From Propionibacteriales bacterium (GTDB lineage: Bacteria > Actinomycetota > Actinomycetes > Propionibacteriales > Nocardioidaceae): a stretch of 64,000 nt of DNA. Position 1 is the stretch's first letter. Each line of letters starts with the position of its first letter. Shown one piece after another: positions 11,441-64,000 of this stretch. The notes under the pieces were generated by a model. That model worked only from the letters and a program-made list of their open reading frames with translations, was not told the DNA's origin and made no database searches. The position numbers and the translations under genes were made by a program. The stretch covers positions 372,001-436,000 of the forward strand of contig JAPLCB010000008.1 of assembly GCA_026392455.1 (NCBI GenBank), given 5' to 3'.

Positions 11441-11519
11441 GTTCTATTCCTTTCATCCTCATTCGATCTACGCTGATAGCTGGTCCGTACGTCGGGGGGC
11501 GTGTGGAGGAGGGATGCCG

Positions 11520-12248
11520 ATGAACGGCTTGTCGGTCGGAGCGAGCCCGCTCGCCCACGGCGTGCACTACGGCGTCCTCGTCCTCGGTCTCCTCGGCCTG
11601 CTGGCCGTCCTCGGCCCGCAGTGGGTCGGGACGCCCCGGTCCCGCGGCCCGCGCGACGAGCACGAGTACCGGGTCGCCGACCTGCAGGCCCGGATCGCGT
11701 CCGGATCGCTGGGCACGTCGCTGGGCACGTCGACCCCGGTCCGGCACCGGACGCCGACGTACTACGCCCCCGACCTGAGCACCGTCCTCGTCCCGCTCCT
11801 GGTGGTCAGCTCGACGGCTGCTGCCGGGGTCCATGCGGCGGTCGCACCGGCACACTTCCGGGAGCTGCCGCTGTTCGGGACCTTCTTCACCCTCTGCGCC
11901 CTGGCCCAGGTGATCTGGTCCACGGCGGCGGTCCTGGTCCCCGGGAGGAACGTGCTGGTCGTCGGGGTCGTCGGCAACGCGGCGGTCCTGCTGCTCTGGC
12001 TCGCCACCCGGACCATCGGCCTCCCGTTCGGGTTGCTGCCGTCCCCGGAGGCGGTCGGCCCGTGGGACCTGTGCTGCGCGACCTGGGAAGCCGTGGTGGT
12101 CGTCGGCGGCCTCGTCCTCCTCCGTCGTGGCGCCGACACCCCGATGACCTTGCCCGGGTACGACGACTGGCCGAGCTCAGCCAGGCTCTGGCTGCTCGGG
12201 TCCGTCATCGTCCTCGGAGCCCTGACCGCGAGCGGAGCACACGGATGA
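11520..12248 (+). CDS. Membrane protein, first gene of the ETR1-like signalling operon
   Basis: 242 residues with about five hydrophobic segments: near 10-30, then after a polar loop about 85-105, 118-140, 147-167 and 190-235. I do not recognise the family. AGGAGG at 11507-11512 sits one base before the ATG at 11514 but seven bases before the ATG at 11520, so 11520 is the better start. The stop overlaps the next ATG (ATGA), so it is translationally coupled to the receptor-like protein. A role as membrane partner or ligand-handling subunit of the sensor is inference from position only. Confidence 0.65.
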   Translation: MNGLSVGASPLAHGVHYGVLVLGLLGLLAVLGPQWVGTPRSRGPRDEHEYRVADLQARIASGSLGTSLGTSTPVRHRTPTYYAPDLSTVLVPLLVVSSTAAAGVHAAVAPAHFRELPLFGTFFTLCALAQVIWSTAAVLVPGRNVLVVGVVGNAAVLLLWLATRTIGLPFGLLPSPEAVGPWDLCCATWEAVVVVGGLVLLRRGADTPMTLPGYDDWPSSARLWLLGSVIVLGALTASGAHG

Positions 12249-12844
12249 CGTCATGGCAGGTCGGACTCGTGTGCAACGCGATCATCATGGTCGCCTACCT
12301 CTTGATCACGCTGGCGATCGTGGTGCCACTGGCGCGCAGCCACCAGCTCCGGACCAACCCGCTGGGGGCTGCGACGGGGGCGATCTTCTTCACCTGCTCG
12401 GTGCACCACGGCGCCCATGCTCTGCACATGCTGCTGCCAGCCTTCGGGGTCGGTGACGACCAGGGCCTGGCGATGCGGGCTGCCTGGGGGTGGCCGCTGG
12501 CGCTCTGGGACGTCGTCGGGGCACTCACCGCGATGTACTACTGGACGCTGCGCCGCAACTACTCCTCCCTCATGCACGGAGCCCAGCTCTTCGACGACCT
12601 GCGCCAACGCGAACGGCAGGCCCTGGAGCTGCACGACTCGGTCCTGCAAGGGCTCGTCGTGGCCAAGATGGCCCTCGACCTGAACCAGCCCGGCCGCTCG
12701 CAGGAGGCGCTCGCCTCCTCGATCGAGGCCGCCAGCCGCATCATCACCGACCTACTGGGCAACGGCGCGGACGGCCACAGCCTGGTGCGCTCCACCCCGG
12801 CCCTCCTCGAGAAGCCGGTGACCCCCGGGGAACCGACGCCGTGA
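12245..12844 (+). CDS. Ethylene-receptor-like membrane sensor with phosphoacceptor helix, no ATPase domain
   Basis: 199 residues. Three membrane helices (about 6-29, 40-64, 77-104) align without gaps to the plant ETR1 ethylene-binding domain as I recall it: N11 with Asp25, Y18 with Tyr32, I21 with Ile35, T22 with Pro36, C51 with Cys65 and H55 with His69. Cys65 and His69 bind copper in ETR1. The sensor is followed by an HPK7/HisKA_3-type dimerisation helix with ELHDSVLQGL, making H130 the likely phosphoacceptor. No HATPase domain follows; the protein stops after a short tail. It overlaps both neighbours by four bases, and the next gene supplies an ATPase domain. Sensor assignment is moderate; ligand is unproven. 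Confidence 0.65.
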   Translation: MTSWQVGLVCNAIIMVAYLLITLAIVVPLARSHQLRTNPLGAATGAIFFTCSVHHGAHALHMLLPAFGVGDDQGLAMRAAWGWPLALWDVVGALTAMYYWTLRRNYSSLMHGAQLFDDLRQRERQALELHDSVLQGLVVAKMALDLNQPGRSQEALASSIEAASRIITDLLGNGADGHSLVRSTPALLEKPVTPGEPTP

Positions 12845-14283
12845 CGATCGACGTCCTCGGCTCCGGGACCCTGCGGGTGGTGATCGTCGACGACACCGCC
12901 GACCTGCGTGAGCTGCTCCGGCACGCCCTGGTCCGCGGGGGCATGGCCGTGGTCGGCGAGGCCGGTGACGGTGCCGCCGGGATCGAGGTCGTTCGCTCCA
13001 CCCAGCCCGACGTCGTGCTGCTCGACCTGTCGATGCCGGTGATGGACGGGCTGGAAGCACTCCCGAAGATCCGAGCCCTGGCCCCGCAGACGCGGGTGAT
13101 CGTCCTGTCGGGTTTCGAGGCCACCCAGATGGCCGAGCGCGCGCTGGCGATCGGGGCGGACGGCTATCTCCAGAAGGGCGCTTCCCTCGGCCGCATCCTC
13201 GACCAGATCCGCGACATCGTCGGGGACCGCCCAGGTCCGCCGGCAACGCCGGGCGAGGTCGAGGTGGTCGCTCCCGTGGTCCTCGCACCAGTGGACGCAC
13301 CGGCTCATGACGTGACCACCGCGCAGGCACCCCCGCTCTGGGACGCTGTCTCCCTGGCACCGTTCGCCATCCTCGAGATCGGCGCCGACCCGCCGTACCG
13401 CCTGGTGTCCATCAACGCCGCCGGTCGCTCGTTGCTGTGCGTGGACCCCCTTCCCAGCGAGCCCCTCGCCGATGTCGCCCCGGAGATCGCCGCAGCCATC
13501 TCCAACAGCAGGCTGACCGGCGACGGCGAGTTCGAGGCCAACGTCCAGGACCGTCCGGTCCGGGTCACGTTGCGGCACACGGCGACCTCCCTGCTGATCT
13601 ACCTGCACGAGATCACCGACGAGATCGGCCACCTGCGCAGCGCGATCGCGACGACGGCGCACGAGATCCGCGGACCGGTCGCGGTCCTCTGCGCGATCAC
13701 CGAGACGATCCTCGAGGAAGAGCTCGAGACCCGGCACGTCGAACGTCTGATGACCGCGATCGGTCGGCAGTCGCGGCTGCTCGACAGCATCACCGGAGAC
13801 CTGCTCGTCGCGGCCCAGGTCCAGCGCGGCACCTTGCGCATCGACTCCCGGACCTTCGACCCGATCCCGGTCGTGACAGCGGTGATGGAGGACCACGGGC
13901 TCACCCACGAGGCGCTCGACGTCGAGGACCGGCGGCAGGTGCACGCCGATCCTCTCCGCCTGCAGCAGATGCTCGGCAACCTGATCTCCAACGCGCGCAA
14001 GTACGGCGAACCGCCGATCCGGATCCGGATCCGGTCCGGCTCGGAGGTCAGCCGCCAGGTCTGCATCGACGTCGAGGACCGGGGGCCGGGCGTGCCCCCG
14101 GACTTCCAACCCCAGCTCTTCCGGGAGTTCAGCAGGGCCGGTGGGACCGTTGCGGCTGGCTCCGGGCTCGGGCTCAACGTGGTCCAGACCCTGGCCCAGG
14201 CCCAGGGCGGCTCGGTCAGCTACCAACCACGCGTCGGTACCGGTGCGGTCTTCACCCTGAGCCTTCCCGCCGCGGGCGGCTAG
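12841..14283 (+). CDS. Receiver-PAS-histidine kinase hybrid
   Basis: 480 residues, GTG start overlapping the previous stop. An N-terminal receiver domain (about 11-125) has the phosphoacceptor D62 in VVLLDLSMP and K112; the residue after K112 is Gly, not the usual Pro. A PAS-like region (about 165-245) follows, then a HisKA domain with TTAHEIRGPVAVL and a complete HATPase (N box NLISNARKYG, DRGPGVPPDF, GSGLGLNVV). This reverses the usual kinase-then-receiver order. A plausible path is phosphotransfer between H130 of the upstream protein and D62 here. A hairpin terminator follows the stop. Confidence 0.85.
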   Translation: MTIDVLGSGTLRVVIVDDTADLRELLRHALVRGGMAVVGEAGDGAAGIEVVRSTQPDVVLLDLSMPVMDGLEALPKIRALAPQTRVIVLSGFEATQMAERALAIGADGYLQKGASLGRILDQIRDIVGDRPGPPATPGEVEVVAPVVLAPVDAPAHDVTTAQAPPLWDAVSLAPFAILEIGADPPYRLVSINAAGRSLLCVDPLPSEPLADVAPEIAAAISNSRLTGDGEFEANVQDRPVRVTLRHTATSLLIYLHEITDEIGHLRSAIATTAHEIRGPVAVLCAITETILEEELETRHVERLMTAIGRQSRLLDSITGDLLVAAQVQRGTLRIDSRTFDPIPVVTAVMEDHGLTHEALDVEDRRQVHADPLRLQQMLGNLISNARKYGEPPIRIRIRSGSEVSRQVCIDVEDRGPGVPPDFQPQLFREFSRAGGTVAAGSGLGLNVVQTLAQAQGGSVSYQPRVGTGAVFTLSLPAAGG

Positions 14284-14334: not shown

Positions 14335-14646
14335 TTCCGAAGCCGCGTTGGAGCGTTCTGTACGGCGGTGGGCCAAGGGGGGTTTGGCTCTGCACGCCCG
14401 ATCCAACGTCTGGGGGCTGGCTTCGGCGTCTGTGGCGGTGCTCCCCCTTGCTGACCCTGGCTGACCCTGGCTGACTTCTGAGTACGGGCTCCTGAGGTCA
14501 CTAGAGTGCCGCCGGGCCAGTTGCGGCAAGCAGTTCCCCGGCGGAACCGCCCCGTGGACTAGCCCGCCCGGCGTCCGGAGTGGACCACTGAATCGCCCGA
14601 ACCGGGATGCGCACCGCAAATCTTCGGCGCGGCCTACGCTGTGCTC
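14335..14646. other. Gene-free stretch with short direct repeats
   Basis: No coding region with plausible composition is seen here. It contains CTGACCCTGG twice in tandem plus a third partial CTGAC (14451-14475). The rest probably holds the promoter of the downstream membrane-protein gene; I cannot place a -10/-35 pair with confidence. Confidence 0.5.
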
Positions 14647-15024
14647 ATGAAGTACGTGACCTGGTTGATCGCCAACGCGCTCGCCGTCGGCGCCGCGGTC
14701 TGGCTCTTCTCCGGCATCTCGCTGGCGGGCGCCGACACCGACCGGGACAAGATCGTCTCGCTGCTGGTGGTCGGCGCCATCTTCGGGGTCGTCACCTCGG
14801 TGGTCCGACCGGTCGTCAACCTGTTGTCGTTGCCGCTGATCGTCCTGACCCTCGGTTTCATGCTGCTGGTCACCAACGGCCTGATGCTGCTGCTGACCGA
14901 CAGGATCGCGGACACCTTCGGCCTGCACTTCGCCGTCGACGGGTTCTGGACCGCCTTCTGGGGCGCGATCGTGATCTCGATCGCCGGCGTGATCGTCGAC
15001 GCCGTGCTGCCCTCCCACGACTGA
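14647..15024 (+). CDS. Phage-holin family 4 (PF04020-type) membrane protein
   Basis: 125 residues with four hydrophobic helices and the family pattern VVRPVVNLLSLPLIVLTLG in the centre, where RP(V/I)...L.LP is diagnostic. Despite the name, these are chromosomal envelope proteins of unknown role in many bacteria, and no phage genes surround this one. ATG at 14647 is preferred over the GTG two codons earlier. It lies six bases before the phosphatase gene and is probably co-transcribed with it. Confidence 0.8.
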   Translation: MKYVTWLIANALAVGAAVWLFSGISLAGADTDRDKIVSLLVVGAIFGVVTSVVRPVVNLLSLPLIVLTLGFMLLVTNGLMLLLTDRIADTFGLHFAVDGFWTAFWGAIVISIAGVIVDAVLPSHD

Positions 15025-15030
15025 GGTCCC

Positions 15031-15519
15031 GTGCCGGCACTTCGGATCGCGCTGGTGTGCCTCGGCAACATCTGCCGGTCCCCCACCGCGGACGTCGTCC
15101 TGAACCAGCGGCTGCGCGACGCCGGGCTGGACCACGCGGTCACCGCGGAGAGCTGCGGCACCGGCGACTGGCACGTCGGGGAGCCGATGGACCCTCGCAC
15201 GGCGCGGGTCCTCACCGCTGCCGGGTACGACGCCAGCCGGCACCGGGCGCGGACGTTCGGGCCGGCCTGGTTCGACCACGACCTGATCCTGACGATGGAC
15301 GCGAGCAACCACACCGACGTGCTGGCGTCGCTCCCGGTCGACCGTCACGACCGGGTCCGACTCTTCCGCAGCTGGGACCCCGAGCGTGATCCGGACCAGC
15401 CCGTCCCCGACGTCCCGGATCCCTGGTACGGCGGCCCGGCTGGCTTCGCCGACGTCCTCACGATCGTCGAGCGGACCTGTACGGCTCTGGTGGCCGACCT
15501 CGAGGGGGCTGGTCAGTAG
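15031..15519 (+). CDS. Low-molecular-weight protein tyrosine phosphatase family; possible ribulosamine-5-phosphatase
   Basis: 162 residues with the P-loop CLGNICRS at 10-17 (nucleophile C10, R16) and the general-acid motif as DPWYGG near 130. Length and motifs fit the LMW-PTP family (PtpA/YwlE). The next gene is a fructosamine-kinase homologue. In bacteria this pairing has been linked experimentally to repair of ribulosamine/erythrulosamine adducts, where the phosphatase dephosphorylates sugar 5-phosphate adducts on proteins. That role is favoured here by context but not proven by sequence. GTG start at 15031. Confidence 0.85.
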   Translation: MPALRIALVCLGNICRSPTADVVLNQRLRDAGLDHAVTAESCGTGDWHVGEPMDPRTARVLTAAGYDASRHRARTFGPAWFDHDLILTMDASNHTDVLASLPVDRHDRVRLFRSWDPERDPDQPVPDVPDPWYGGPAGFADVLTIVERTCTALVADLEGAGQ

Positions 15520-61790: not shown

Positions 61791-63335
61791 TCAGTCGACC
61801 AGCTCGACCGGGCCGACCTTCTGGAGCACCAGCCGGAAGCCCGCCCCGCGCCCAGGCGCCGGGAAGTACGAGATCTCCGCACCGTTGAGACCCAGCAGGA
61901 GACGCACGATGTGCAGACCCAGGCCAGTCCCCCGTTGACCTCCCAGCCTCGCCGCGGCCGACCGACTGAACCGGTCGAACAGGTGCGGGACGAACTCGGT
62001 CGGCACTCCGGGACCGTTGTCGCTCACGCTGAGGACGATCCCGTCGACCTCCTCCGCGGTCGAGATGGTCAGGACGTCTCCCCCGTACTTGACGGCATTG
62101 GTGACCAGGTTGGTCAGGACCTGCGTCAGATGGACGGGATCCATCCAGGCAACGACCGGGCGTAGCCCGGAGATGTCGATCCTCTGGGTCGACGTGTCGA
62201 GAGTCTTCAGGGCTTCACCTACCGCACGATCGAGCTCGATCGGTACGGGACTGGCGACGATGCCGTTCTCGTCGAGGGTCGACACCGTGAGCGAGTTGTC
62301 CAGGAGCACCTGCAAGGAGTGGCTGGCAGCACCAATCCGCCGGACGTAGTCGCGGCGTTCGTCGTCGGAGTAGTCCTCCCAACCGATGGCCAGCGCCTCG
62401 GAGAAGCCAGCGACCACCGTGGTCGGCGTCCGGAGATCGTGGGCCAGGATGCCGATGAGATCTCGAAGCGCGTCGTGCTGCAGCTTCCGCTCGCTGATGT
62501 CCTGGATCTGCGAGATGAAGTAGAGAGGGGCCTGCTCGTCGTCCCGCACCAAGGTGACCGAGAGGAGTACCCAGACCGTCCCGCCCGCGGCCGTCCGATA
62601 GCGCTTCTCCATCTGGTACGAGGAGATCTCGCCAGCGACGAGTCTCTTCAGGTGACTCAGGTCGAGATCGAGGTCGTCAGGGTGCGTGATGTCCTGGAAG
62701 GACATCTCCAGGAGCTCGCCCTCGCTGTAGCCGGTCAACTCGGCCAACGCGGAGTTCACCGCACGCCACCGACCGTCGAGCTCCACCAGAGCCTGGCCGA
62801 TCGGCGCGAAGTCGAAGGACAGCCGCATCCGTTGCTCGGACTCACGCATCGTCTGCTCAGCCACCCTGGCGTCGGTCACGTCCTGGGTGAACCCCAGACC
62901 AGCGATCGGCAGTTCGTCGTCACCGAGCACCGGCGCCAGTCGCTGCAGGAAGACACGCCCCTCGAAGGGGACGTCGAACGACGTGCACTCTCCGCGCAGG
63001 GCAGCACGGTAGAGCGGCTCGATGACGGCCACGGTCTCGGGCGGGAAGACCTCGAAGATCGTGCGGCCCTCGAGCATCTCCCGCGACAGCCCCACGTCAG
63101 CGAGCCCCTGGCCACCCGCGGACAGGTAGCGCAGGTCCTGGTCGAAGGCGAAGAGGGCACCTTGGGGGAACGAACGCACCAGAGGGTGGTCCCCGGATCG
63201 AGCGAGCTGCGCGATCCGGCTCGACCGCTTGTCACCGTCGTCGAGGCGAGGTGGATCCCCATCCCCGGGGGCAGGTTCGCCATCCGTTGATGCGCCGACG
63301 CCAAGCGCCCGTTCGCGAGCGGATGAGTCGTGCAT
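61791..63335 (-). CDS. Soluble multi-PAS sensor histidine kinase
   Basis: 514 residues, no membrane helix. A first PAS domain (about 52-160, GALFAFDQDLRYLSAGGQGL), a second PAS with PAC (about 170-290, GRWRAVNSALAELTGYSEGE and FQDITHPDDLDLDL), then HisKA with GILAHDLRTPTTVVAGF and HATPase (NLVTNAVKYG, DNGPGVPTEF, GTGLGLHIV). It lies 46 bp downstream of the receiver-containing gene on the same strand and is the likely kinase of that system. Cytosolic signals such as redox or small ligands are plausible for the PAS domains. Confidence 0.87.
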   Translation of the reverse strand: MHDSSARERALGVGASTDGEPAPGDGDPPRLDDGDKRSSRIAQLARSGDHPLVRSFPQGALFAFDQDLRYLSAGGQGLADVGLSREMLEGRTIFEVFPPETVAVIEPLYRAALRGECTSFDVPFEGRVFLQRLAPVLGDDELPIAGLGFTQDVTDARVAEQTMRESEQRMRLSFDFAPIGQALVELDGRWRAVNSALAELTGYSEGELLEMSFQDITHPDDLDLDLSHLKRLVAGEISSYQMEKRYRTAAGGTVWVLLSVTLVRDDEQAPLYFISQIQDISERKLQHDALRDLIGILAHDLRTPTTVVAGFSEALAIGWEDYSDDERRDYVRRIGAASHSLQVLLDNSLTVSTLDENGIVASPVPIELDRAVGEALKTLDTSTQRIDISGLRPVVAWMDPVHLTQVLTNLVTNAVKYGGDVLTISTAEEVDGIVLSVSDNGPGVPTEFVPHLFDRFSRSAAARLGGQRGTGLGLHIVRLLLGLNGAEISYFPAPGRGAGFRLVLQKVGPVELVD

Positions 63336-63381
63336 CGATCACCACCGATCTCGTCAACGTTGCCTATTCGATCTGTTCAGG

Positions 63382-64000
63382 TCACGCGGCTTCGAGCACC
63401 CCGTTGATGGCGGCGACGAGGTCGCCCACCGTGCCGCCCTTCGTCAGGTAGCGGTCTGCTCCCGCGCTCAAGGCCTGGGCTTCCAGGTCGCCGGTGTTGA
63501 ACCCGGAGAGCACGATCACGCGTACGCCCGGAACCGCAGCACGGATCATCGGAAGGGCTTGGAGGCCATCCATGCGCGGCATCGCCAGATCCAGCAGCAC
63601 CAGGTCGGGGCGCAACGACCGCGCCTTGTCCACTCCGTCGAGACCATCAGCAGCCTCGCCGATGATGTCGAAACCGCCCACCCTGGTGAGCTGGAGCCGC
63701 AGCAAGGTCCTGATGTCCTCGGAGTCGTCGACGATCAACACCCTGGGCGAGGTGGGCTCCGGCACCGCGCGCCGAGGTTCCTCGACCCGCTCGGGGCCAC
63801 CTTCGGTACCTGGTGCCACCTGGGCACTCGTCGTGCGCACCAGGTCGCCTCCCGACAGAACACCGCCGCGGGGTTCGAGCAGGTTGCCCATCATGGTCCT
63901 CGCCGCTCCGAGCGTCACGTCGAGGTAGGACCGCGCGCCAACGAGGTCCGACTGGTCCAACGAGTAGCTCGCCGCAGCCAGTCCCTGCACCACGCTGTCG
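63382..64000 (-). CDS. Phosphoacceptor-helix plus receiver fusion protein (5' end outside window)
   Basis: The frame is open at the right edge; the visible 205 codons begin DSVVQGLAAASYSL. This matches the HDSVLQGL dimerisation helix of the ETR1-like protein at 12245-12844, including the shared LVR(S/T)T stretch after it. A linker (to about residue 85) and a receiver domain follow (VLIVDDSEDIR, phosphoacceptor Asp in LVLLDLAMPRMDG, VIVLSGF, and KGG instead of KP). There is no ATPase domain between the His helix and the receiver. The PAS kinase gene follows. The missing N-terminus may hold the sensor. Confidence 0.75.
   Translation of the reverse strand, partial: DSVVQGLAAASYSLDQSDLVGARSYLDVTLGAARTMMGNLLEPRGGVLSGGDLVRTTSAQVAPGTEGGPERVEEPRRAVPEPTSPRVLIVDDSEDIRTLLRLQLTRVGGFDIIGEAADGLDGVDKARSLRPDLVLLDLAMPRMDGLQALPMIRAAVPGVRVIVLSGFNTGDLEAQALSAGADRYLTKGGTVGDLVAAINGVLEAA

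What the first reader, a model, noticed from the sequence alone, without database searches (positions are those of the whole stretch)
12245..12844. Bacterial ethylene-receptor-like (ETR1-type) sensor in an actinobacterial signalling operon
The first 58 residues align to Arabidopsis ETR1 residues 25-72 with no gap and a constant offset of 14. Y18, I21, C51 and H55 match ETR1 Tyr32, Ile35, Cys65 and His69; G45-A46 match Gly59-Ala60; N11 replaces Asp25 and T22 replaces Pro36. Cys65/His69 are the copper ligands needed for ethylene binding, and a third membrane helix follows as in ETR1. The reference residues are recalled, not looked up. If right, this is a copper-dependent olefin or gas sensor; the Asp-to-Asn change may alter ligand range. 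I know of few such sensors outside cyanobacteria and plants.
Basis: partly seen in the sequence, partly recalled or inferred. Interest (0 to 1): 0.8.

Follow-up and report, generated by a model that had tools for sequence, protein, structure and literature searches.

The report
Ethylene-receptor-like sensor with phosphatase-type output
An actinobacterium carries a small membrane protein whose sensor part is a divergent relative of the plant ethylene receptor's copper-binding domain, joined to a stripped-down signalling domain that probably switches a neighbouring regulator off instead of on.

Summary
ORF 12245-12844 (+, 199 aa) has three predicted membrane helices; the first two match the ethylene-binding domain (EBD) at one constant offset. 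ETR1_N is its best Pfam hit (9e-5, below cut-off) and is hit at E<=0.001 in 68 of 81 relatives. A family profile matches 11 bacterial EBDs, AzoEtr1 among them, far above shuffled controls. The copper ligands (C51, H55) and Y18/I21 are conserved, but the affinity-setting Asp is Asn and two other binding residues differ (4 of 7 kept). So this is a distinct N-type EBD subfamily, not a proven ethylene receptor.

Of 45 short relatives, 41 have Asn and 2 Gln instead of the phospho-acceptor His, all 45 keep the adjacent DxxxQ phosphatase motif, and 44 have a receiver gene next door. The window copy's His is a lone change inside an otherwise all-Asn clade. Best reading: a copper/gas-type sensor controlling a receiver phosphatase. 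EBD homology is well supported; phosphatase output is inferred from motif and synteny; the ligand is untested. A coupled upstream membrane protein with four conserved His may be a partner.

The parts
12245..12844 (+). EBD-DHp protein (P0001, 199 aa): N-type ethylene-binding-like membrane sensor plus HisKA_3-type DHp without ATPase domain
12251..12559 (+). Three-helix membrane sensor domain, residues 3-105 (N11, Y18, I21, F48, C51, H55, H58, D89)
   Evidence: ETR1_N hit 7-67; model helices 3-31, 39-67, 83-105; column counts
12395..12409 (+). Candidate Cu(I) site C51-S-V-H54-H55 (Cys/His i,i+4); H58 follows at 12416-12418
   Evidence: aligned to C75/H79 of AzoEtr1; C51 and H55 in 27 of 28 covering rows of the same-family set
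12584..12760 (+). DHp helical hairpin, residues 114-172, HisKA_3-like, no catalytic domain
   Evidence: HisKA_3 1.3e-4 at 122-169, below cut-off; hhalign to HisKA_3 domains of the same genome; model helices 114-145, 149-172
12632..12649 (+). H130-D131-S-V-L-Q135: H-box with the DxxxQ phosphatase motif; position 130 is Asn in 41 of 45 short relatives
12841..14283 (+). REC - linker - HisKA - HATPase protein (P0003; GTG start, chosen by me, overlaps the sensor's stop by 4 bases); probable phosphatase substrate
   Evidence: Pfam Response_reg 1.5e-27, HATPase_c 8.8e-24, HisKA 5.7e-4 (below cut-off); D17/D18, D62, S90, K112 in 45 of 45 rows
11514..12248 (+). P0002, membrane protein without known family, ATGA overlap with the sensor gene; conserved H15, H18, H107, H114; candidate partner or cofactor protein
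   Evidence: homologue upstream on the same strand in 34 of 45 short-form loci; conserved residues

Best explanation
The gene encodes a membrane sensor whose three-helix domain is a divergent (Asn-type) member of the ethylene-receptor sensor superfamily. It probably holds one Cu(I) on C51 and H55, with H58 as a possible third ligand, and senses a small gas or olefin, or copper itself. The ligand state is passed down TM3 into a HisKA_3-type DHp hairpin that has no ATPase domain. This DHp does not phosphorylate; through the D131-x-x-x-Q135 motif it dephosphorylates the receiver domain encoded by the overlapping next gene (REC-HisKA-HATPase, P0003). The circuit is a neighbouring kinase that charges a receiver and a separate ligand-gated phosphatase that discharges it. 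Shown here by sequence: domain homologies, conservation, absence of an ATPase domain, gene coupling. Inferred: metal, ligand, phosphatase activity, direction of control. P0002 may load or protect the metal site (speculative).
For: EBD homology. Site conservation in a profile-found set of 29 rows from 28 same-family genomes (window's own included; 28 rows cover each site): N11 28, I21 28, Y18 27, C51 27, H55 27, H58 27 (loci). DHp homology to HisKA_3: E=2e-5 with 19 Asn rows alone, score 28.5, versus a shuffle maximum of 15.9 in 60. Phospho-acceptor position: Asn 41, Gln 2, His 2 of 45 short relatives, D-x-[VI]-[LV]-Q in 45 of 45. Receiver gene within 200 bases of the sensor's end in 44 of 45 (L071's contig ends). 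The receiver keeps its acidic pair, phospho-Asp, Ser and Lys in 45 of 45 rows, P0003 included. In NarX (HisKA_3) DxxxQ is required for phosphatase activity and the His is reported nonessential for it (PMC3510030 and PMC5231405, passages). Asp-to-Asn in ETR1 is reported to give a functional receptor with about 100-fold lower affinity (PMC13012798, passage citing Aman 2025).
Against: The window copy itself has His130, so phosphotransfer from another kinase is not excluded in this species. Three of seven ethylene-binding residues differ; the TM3 Lys that pairs with the Asp in ETR1/AzoEtr1 has no clear counterpart (it aligns best to L85, next to D89). Some relatives have lost the Cys (L171, L143; L101), and L171 and L101 the His as well. 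At Pfam level HisKA_3 is hit in 6 of 81 rows at E<=0.1 and only in P0001 at E<=0.001 (35 of the 81 rows are long forms cut at 135 aa, which lack this DHp). Marginal ETR1_N scores are not specific. Fold searches gave nothing informative. There are no biochemical data.
Confidence: 0.5

Rival explanations
1. The DHp is a phosphotransfer relay (like Spo0B or an HPt; comparison recalled): P0003 or another kinase phosphorylates H130, which passes the phosphoryl group on.
For: The window protein has His130 in the H-box; HisKA_3 homology; adjacent kinase and receiver.
Against: 41 of 45 short relatives have Asn and 2 Gln at this position; in the tree the window's His is nested in a group of 46 rows of which the other 45 are Asn, and its codon CAC is one base from an Asn codon.
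Confidence: 0.15
2. The DHp only dimerises or docks: it is a pseudo-kinase scaffold that steers P0003 without catalysis.
For: Loss of the phospho-acceptor in most short relatives and of the ATPase domain; a pseudo-histidine kinase, DivL, is known to regulate another kinase (PMC9430884, start of abstract in a search listing).
Against: D131 and Q135, the two phosphatase residues, are kept in 45 of 45 short forms while the His is not, and the receiver keeps its phosphorylation site in 45 of 45 rows.
Confidence: 0.2
3. The membrane domain no longer binds copper and olefin in the ETR1 manner: it is a copper-ion, redox, oxygen, CO or NO sensor, or another metal site using C51/H55/H58.
For: Asn for Asp, Thr for Pro, Phe for Ile; extra conserved His58 and D89; natural losses of the Cys (L143, L171; L101).
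Against: Cys/His spacing and the Tyr and Ile of the ethylene site are conserved across the family; Asp-to-Asn ETR1 is reported functional (PMC13012798, passage).
Confidence: 0.4
4. Chance resemblance of an unrelated 3-TM domain.
For: Single-sequence identity to AzoEtr1 is not above other offsets; the window protein is below the ETR1_N cut-off; marginal ETR1_N hits include unrelated proteins.
Against: 68 of 81 rows hit ETR1_N at E<=0.001, another membrane family 1; profile-profile score 38.5 versus null mean 13.0, sd 3.1, maximum 23.8; invariance of the named residues.
Confidence: 0.04

Closest known systems
Ethylene receptors ETR1 (Arabidopsis), SynEtr1 (Synechocystis), AzoEtr1 (Azospirillum brasilense); Pfam PF25487 ETR1_N
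   Same: Three N-terminal membrane helices, Tyr/Ile in TM1, Cys/His copper ligands in TM2 at the same spacing, two-component signalling context.
   Different: Asn for Asp, Thr for Pro, Phe for Ile in the binding set; extra conserved His58 and Asp89; no clear TM3 Lys; output is a DHp without ATPase domain, not a histidine kinase.
HisKA_3 histidine kinases with DxxxQ phosphatase motif (NarX, DesK)
   Same: DHp helix with (H/N)-D-x-V-x-Q, the residues required for receiver dephosphorylation in NarX.
   Different: No ATPase domain in P0001; phospho-acceptor His replaced in 43 of 45 short relatives.
Dedicated receiver phosphatases CheZ, CheX (motif wording from PMC3510030 passages; folds recalled)
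   Same: Acid plus amide motif acting on a receiver.
   Different: Membrane sensor attached; DHp hairpin; activity untested here.
Pseudo-histidine kinase DivL (seen in a search listing)
   Same: Kinase-derived protein that controls a two-component pathway without being its kinase.
   Different: Here the whole catalytic domain is missing and the phosphatase motif is kept.

Membership tests
Ethylene receptor (ETR1-type EBD) | Three N-terminal membrane helices | tested here: met
   AlphaFold2 helices 3-31, 39-67, 83-105; block pLDDT 92-98 for residues 1-100
Ethylene receptor (ETR1-type EBD) | Cys and His copper ligands in TM2 (C65, H69 of ETR1) | tested here: met
   C51, H55 at the offset found by profile and anchored on AzoEtr1 C75/H79
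Ethylene receptor (ETR1-type EBD) | All seven residues needed for ethylene binding (D25, Y32, I35, P36, I62, C65, H69; Y32 recalled, the others in passages) | tested here: not met
   4 of 7 (Y, I, C, H); D->N, P->T, I->F
Ethylene receptor (ETR1-type EBD) | Pfam PF25487 gathering score 27 | tested here: not met
   23.1 bits for the window protein; 2 of 10 relatives scanned are over (L084, L118)
Ethylene receptor (ETR1-type EBD) | Profile-level homology to bona fide bacterial EBDs | tested here: met
   hhalign probability 87.6, E 3.5e-6, above all 60 shuffles
Ethylene receptor (ETR1-type EBD) | Binds Cu(I) and ethylene | not testable with these tools
   needs protein
HisKA_3 DHp domain | Profile-level homology | tested here: met
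   hhalign 77% (19 Asn rows) to 88% (23 rows) probability, E 2e-5 to 3.6e-6; null maximum 15.9 versus 28.5. The Pfam score is below cut-off: 22.9 versus 24
HisKA_3 histidine kinase | HATPase domain in the same protein | tested here: not met
   none in P0001; the next gene starts with REC
HisKA_3 histidine kinase | Phospho-acceptor His | tested here: inconclusive
   His130 in the window copy; Asn 41, Gln 2, His 2 of 45 relatives
Receiver phosphatase (DxxxQ) | Acid and Gln at DxxxQ of the DHp helix | tested here: met
   D131, Q135 invariant in 20 of 20 rows and motif in 45 of 45 short forms
Receiver phosphatase (DxxxQ) | Dephosphorylates a receiver | not testable with these tools
   needs assay; adjacent receiver gene in 44 of 45

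The most novel reading that the evidence does not exclude
A class of ethylene-receptor-type gas sensors in Actinomycetota whose output is not a kinase but a ligand-gated receiver phosphatase: kinase function (ATPase domain and, in most, the His) was discarded, phosphatase function kept, and the receiver (often fused to the opposing kinase) is encoded by the next gene. The sensor site is a natural D25N-type, low-affinity variant with a third His ligand, served by its own His-bearing membrane protein (P0002). The same Asn-DxxxQ module also occurs behind other sensors, so it may be a general actinobacterial device.
Probability: 0.4. Interest if true: 0.75.

Novelty: new variant of a known kind. 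Interest (0 to 1): 0.6.

Why it matters
The papers seen here discuss ethylene receptors as a trait of plants, cyanobacteria and proteobacteria. Here a natural series of sensors carries the very Asp-to-Asn change reported to lower ETR1 affinity, fixed across a subfamily, so the role of that residue in ligand choice becomes testable by comparison. The output suggests that a two-component sensor can be reduced to its phosphatase half, a natural separation of the two opposed activities of histidine kinases.

Tried and rejected

Dropped rows and biases. Five of 13 ETR1_N matches (L039, L041, L042, L043, L045) look unrelated by eye and were dropped from counts; one search did not find them. One search selected loci by motifs that include C51/H55 or the H-box stretch, and kept 80 of 165 relatives, so its counts for those residues are inflated; one search uses profile-found loci, but the profile was built from rows. 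The DxxxQ count rests on a pattern that itself requires D and Q; it matched in all 45 at the expected place. In some searches start codons were chosen by rule (in one search the one nearest the sensor's stop), so the 4-base overlap (39 of 44) is partly a product of that choice; without it, 43 of 45 sensor stops read ATGA or GTGA, against 254 of 417 long TGA-ended frames (A, G or T before TGA) as a rough background. Ten of the 18 plasmid records were fetched. The tree is the quick kind (SH-aLRT only, midpoint root) and holds near-duplicates (L037/L098, L016/L080, L017/L078).

Prior print: searched for bacterial or actinobacterial ethylene receptors, for kinase-less DHp phosphatases. Listings were partial (for example 15 of 79, 20 of 26, 15 of 28, 25 of 2,034, which was uninformative); I saw nothing on this family in them, judged from titles and abstract starts. 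'Ethylene receptor' with 'Nocardioides' gave one review on endophytes, not opened. Only open-licence papers are held. Azhar 2023 and Aman 2025 are not held and are known here only through citing passages.

Full report
WHAT IS THERE. The ORF at 12245-12844 (+) encodes 199 aa. Its ATG lies in the stop of the upstream gene P0002 (11514-12248; ATGA), and its own stop overlaps a GTG that I take as the start of P0003 (12841-14283; GTGA), so the three genes look translationally coupled. P0001 matches Pfam ETR1_N at residues 7-67 (E 9e-5, 23.1 bits, cut-off 27) and HisKA_3 at 122-169 (E 1.3e-4, 22.9 bits, cut-off 24); it has no ATPase domain. P0003 is Response_reg - linker - HisKA (weak) - HATPase_c. 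An AlphaFold2 model on 81 rows (mean pLDDT 87.9) gives three long helices (3-31, 39-67, 83-105) and a helical hairpin (114-145, 149-172).

IS THE ETHYLENE-RECEPTOR LIKENESS REAL. Yes, at the profile level. I collected 11 bacterial ethylene-binding domains: L034 from an Actinomycetota genome (ETR1_N E 3.5e-29) and ten of the 18 plasmid records. One, L131 from A. brasilense Sp7, contains the published AzoEtr1 primer site and shows D35, Y42, I45, P46, I72, C75, H79 and K98; AzoEtr1 binds ethylene, and D35, C75, H79 and K98 are named there (PMC11819568, passages). A profile of the window family (53 non-redundant of 81 rows) aligns to that set with probability 87.6, E 3.5e-6, score 38.5 over 96 columns; 60 shuffles of columns within segments gave mean 13.0, sd 3.1, maximum 23.8. 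TM1 and TM2, scored separately, choose the same offset. ETR1_N is hit in 68 of 81 rows at E<=0.001, against 1 row for another membrane family (DUF350); at E<=0.1 the numbers are 80 and at most 5. Against this: single-sequence identity to AzoEtr1 (8 of 63) is not above other offsets, and marginal ETR1_N scores alone are not specific, since 5 of the 13 phylum matches look unrelated and at E<=0.1 the family rings in 6 of 14 control genomes.

WHICH RESIDUES ARE KEPT. Of the seven residues required for ethylene binding in ETR1 (the number and six of the names are in passages; Y32 is recalled), four are kept: Y18, I21, C51, H55. D25 is N11, P36 is T22 (variable in the family), I62 is F48. In a profile-found set of 29 rows from 28 same-family genomes, the window's own included, 28 rows cover each site: N11 28, I21 28, F48 28, Y18 27, C51 27, H54 27, H55 27, H58 27, H61 27, D89 25 with 2 Glu and 1 Asn (loci). 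In the seven distinct phylum loci, read from the rows printed: N11 6 of 7, C51 6, H55 7, H58 7, D89 7. In the 81-row pattern-found set H58, which is not in the search pattern, is 80 of 81, D89 78, N11 79. Degenerate relatives without the Cys exist (L171, L143; L101). In ETR1 the Asp-to-Asn change is reported to leave a functional receptor with about 100-fold lower affinity, and natural variants are mentioned (PMC13012798, passages). The Asp-Lys pair described for ETR1/AzoEtr1 (PMC11819568, passage) has no clear counterpart: Lys98 aligns best to L85 and next best to D89.

THE OUTPUT. Of the 80 relatives kept (165 found), 45 are short forms under 260 aa (EBD plus DHp) and 35 are longer. Of the longer, 8 were scanned: 4 are PAS histidine kinases (three with receiver domains) and 4 are GGDEF-EAL proteins. 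In the 45 short forms the residue at the phospho-acceptor position is Asn in 41, Gln in 2, His in 2, and D-x-[VI]-[LV]-Q follows in 45. The DHp is of HisKA_3 type: 19 non-redundant Asn rows alone align to eight HisKA_3 domains of the window's own genome with E 2e-5, score 28.5, against a heptad-preserving shuffle maximum of 15.9 in 60, with the Asn under the phospho-His and the Gln in register with the profile consensus. Pfam alone would not show this: HisKA_3 reaches E<=0.001 only in P0001. In a quick tree of 53 rows (Asn 45, His 6, Gln 2) the window's His sits in a group of 46 rows whose other 45 are Asn; its nearest row, L003, has Asn. The codon is CAC, one base from Asn.

THE NEIGHBOUR. 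A receiver gene begins within 200 bases of the sensor's end in 44 of 45 short forms; the exception, L071, is cut by its contig end. Under the nearest-start rule the overlap is 4 bases in 39 of 44; independent of that rule, 43 of 45 sensor stops read ATGA or GTGA. Of the 44 partners 39 are over 350 aa, and 37 of these show a kinase-like motif (H-box or G-box by pattern); L082, L084, L086, L098 and L101 give frames of 119-170 aa, the size of a receiver alone. The receiver keeps its acidic pair, D62, S90 and K112 in 45 of 45 rows, P0003 included.

MECHANISM. In the HisKA_3 kinase NarX the DxxxQ residues beside the His are required for phosphatase activity (PMC3510030, passages); the Gln is held to place the attacking water, and the His was found nonessential for dephosphorylation (PMC5231405, passages). 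A DHp that has lost the ATPase domain and, in most relatives, the His, but keeps Asp and Gln next to an intact receiver, is most simply a receiver phosphatase. The sensor would set its activity. This last step, the metal and the ligand are inference.

THE UPSTREAM GENE. P0002 has no Pfam family and no NCBIfam match above cut-off. Homologues lie upstream on the same strand, overlapping or within 100 bases, in 34 of 45 short forms, on the opposite strand in L081, and just after the GGDEF-EAL sensor gene of L090; none was found at the other 34 long-form loci. In 35 rows H107, H114, Q132, R166 and D185 are invariant, H15 is 32 and H18 33 of 35. In 197 family genomes 44 have a match at E<=1e-5; 22 have one below 1e-30, and 21 of these 22 are among the 28 with the sensor. 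A cofactor or ligand-handling role is a guess.

DISTRIBUTION. Sensor profile: 8 of 396 Actinomycetota genomes, the window's own included, and 28 of 197 family genomes. Named carriers include Nocardioides, Marmoricola, Frankiales, Actinoplanes, Virgisporangium, Blastococcus, Pseudarthrobacter and Solirubrobacterales, with single MAGs labelled Chloroflexi and Euryarchaeota. For this protein the nearest named relatives are from Nocardioides marmorisolisilvae and Marmoricola MAGs.

VERDICT. Real: a distinct N-type subfamily of ethylene-receptor-like sensors with an unexpected phosphatase-type output, a new variant of a known kind. My odds: EBD homology about 0.95; phosphatase output about 0.6; copper/olefin-type sensing about 0.5 to 0.6.

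Noticed in passing
window 61791-64000 (-), continuing beyond the window; locus L002: A second module of similar design: a 603-aa frame with a PAS-like sensor region, a DHp-like stretch ELNDSVVQ (Asn for His, DxxxQ kept) and a receiver domain in one protein, followed by a PAS-HisKA-HATPase-like kinase gene (domains judged by eye, not by Pfam). The Asn motif is seen in 10 of 11 paralogue loci read (L024 gave no match), with a receiver-like stretch in the same frame in 6 and no G-x-GLGL ATPase motif in any.
   Followed up: partly
window 11514-12248 (+): Unfamilied membrane protein P0002 with four conserved His (15, 18, 107, 114), coupled to the sensor gene in 34 of 45 short-form loci.
   Followed up: partly
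L034 (G380): A canonical Asp-type ethylene-binding domain (ETR1_N E 3.5e-29) on a kinase-like protein in an Actinomycetota genome; the only strong match among 396 genomes (the other one over the cut-off, G474, is of the N-type).
   Followed up: no
L019 and L090: The same sensor domain fused to c-di-GMP enzymes: GGDEF-EAL in L090 by Pfam, a GGDEF-like domain in L019 by eye.
   Followed up: partly
window 14641-15519 (+): Downstream genes: a 4-TM Phage_holin_4_2 family protein and a low-molecular-weight protein tyrosine phosphatase; link to the sensor operon not tested.
   Followed up: no
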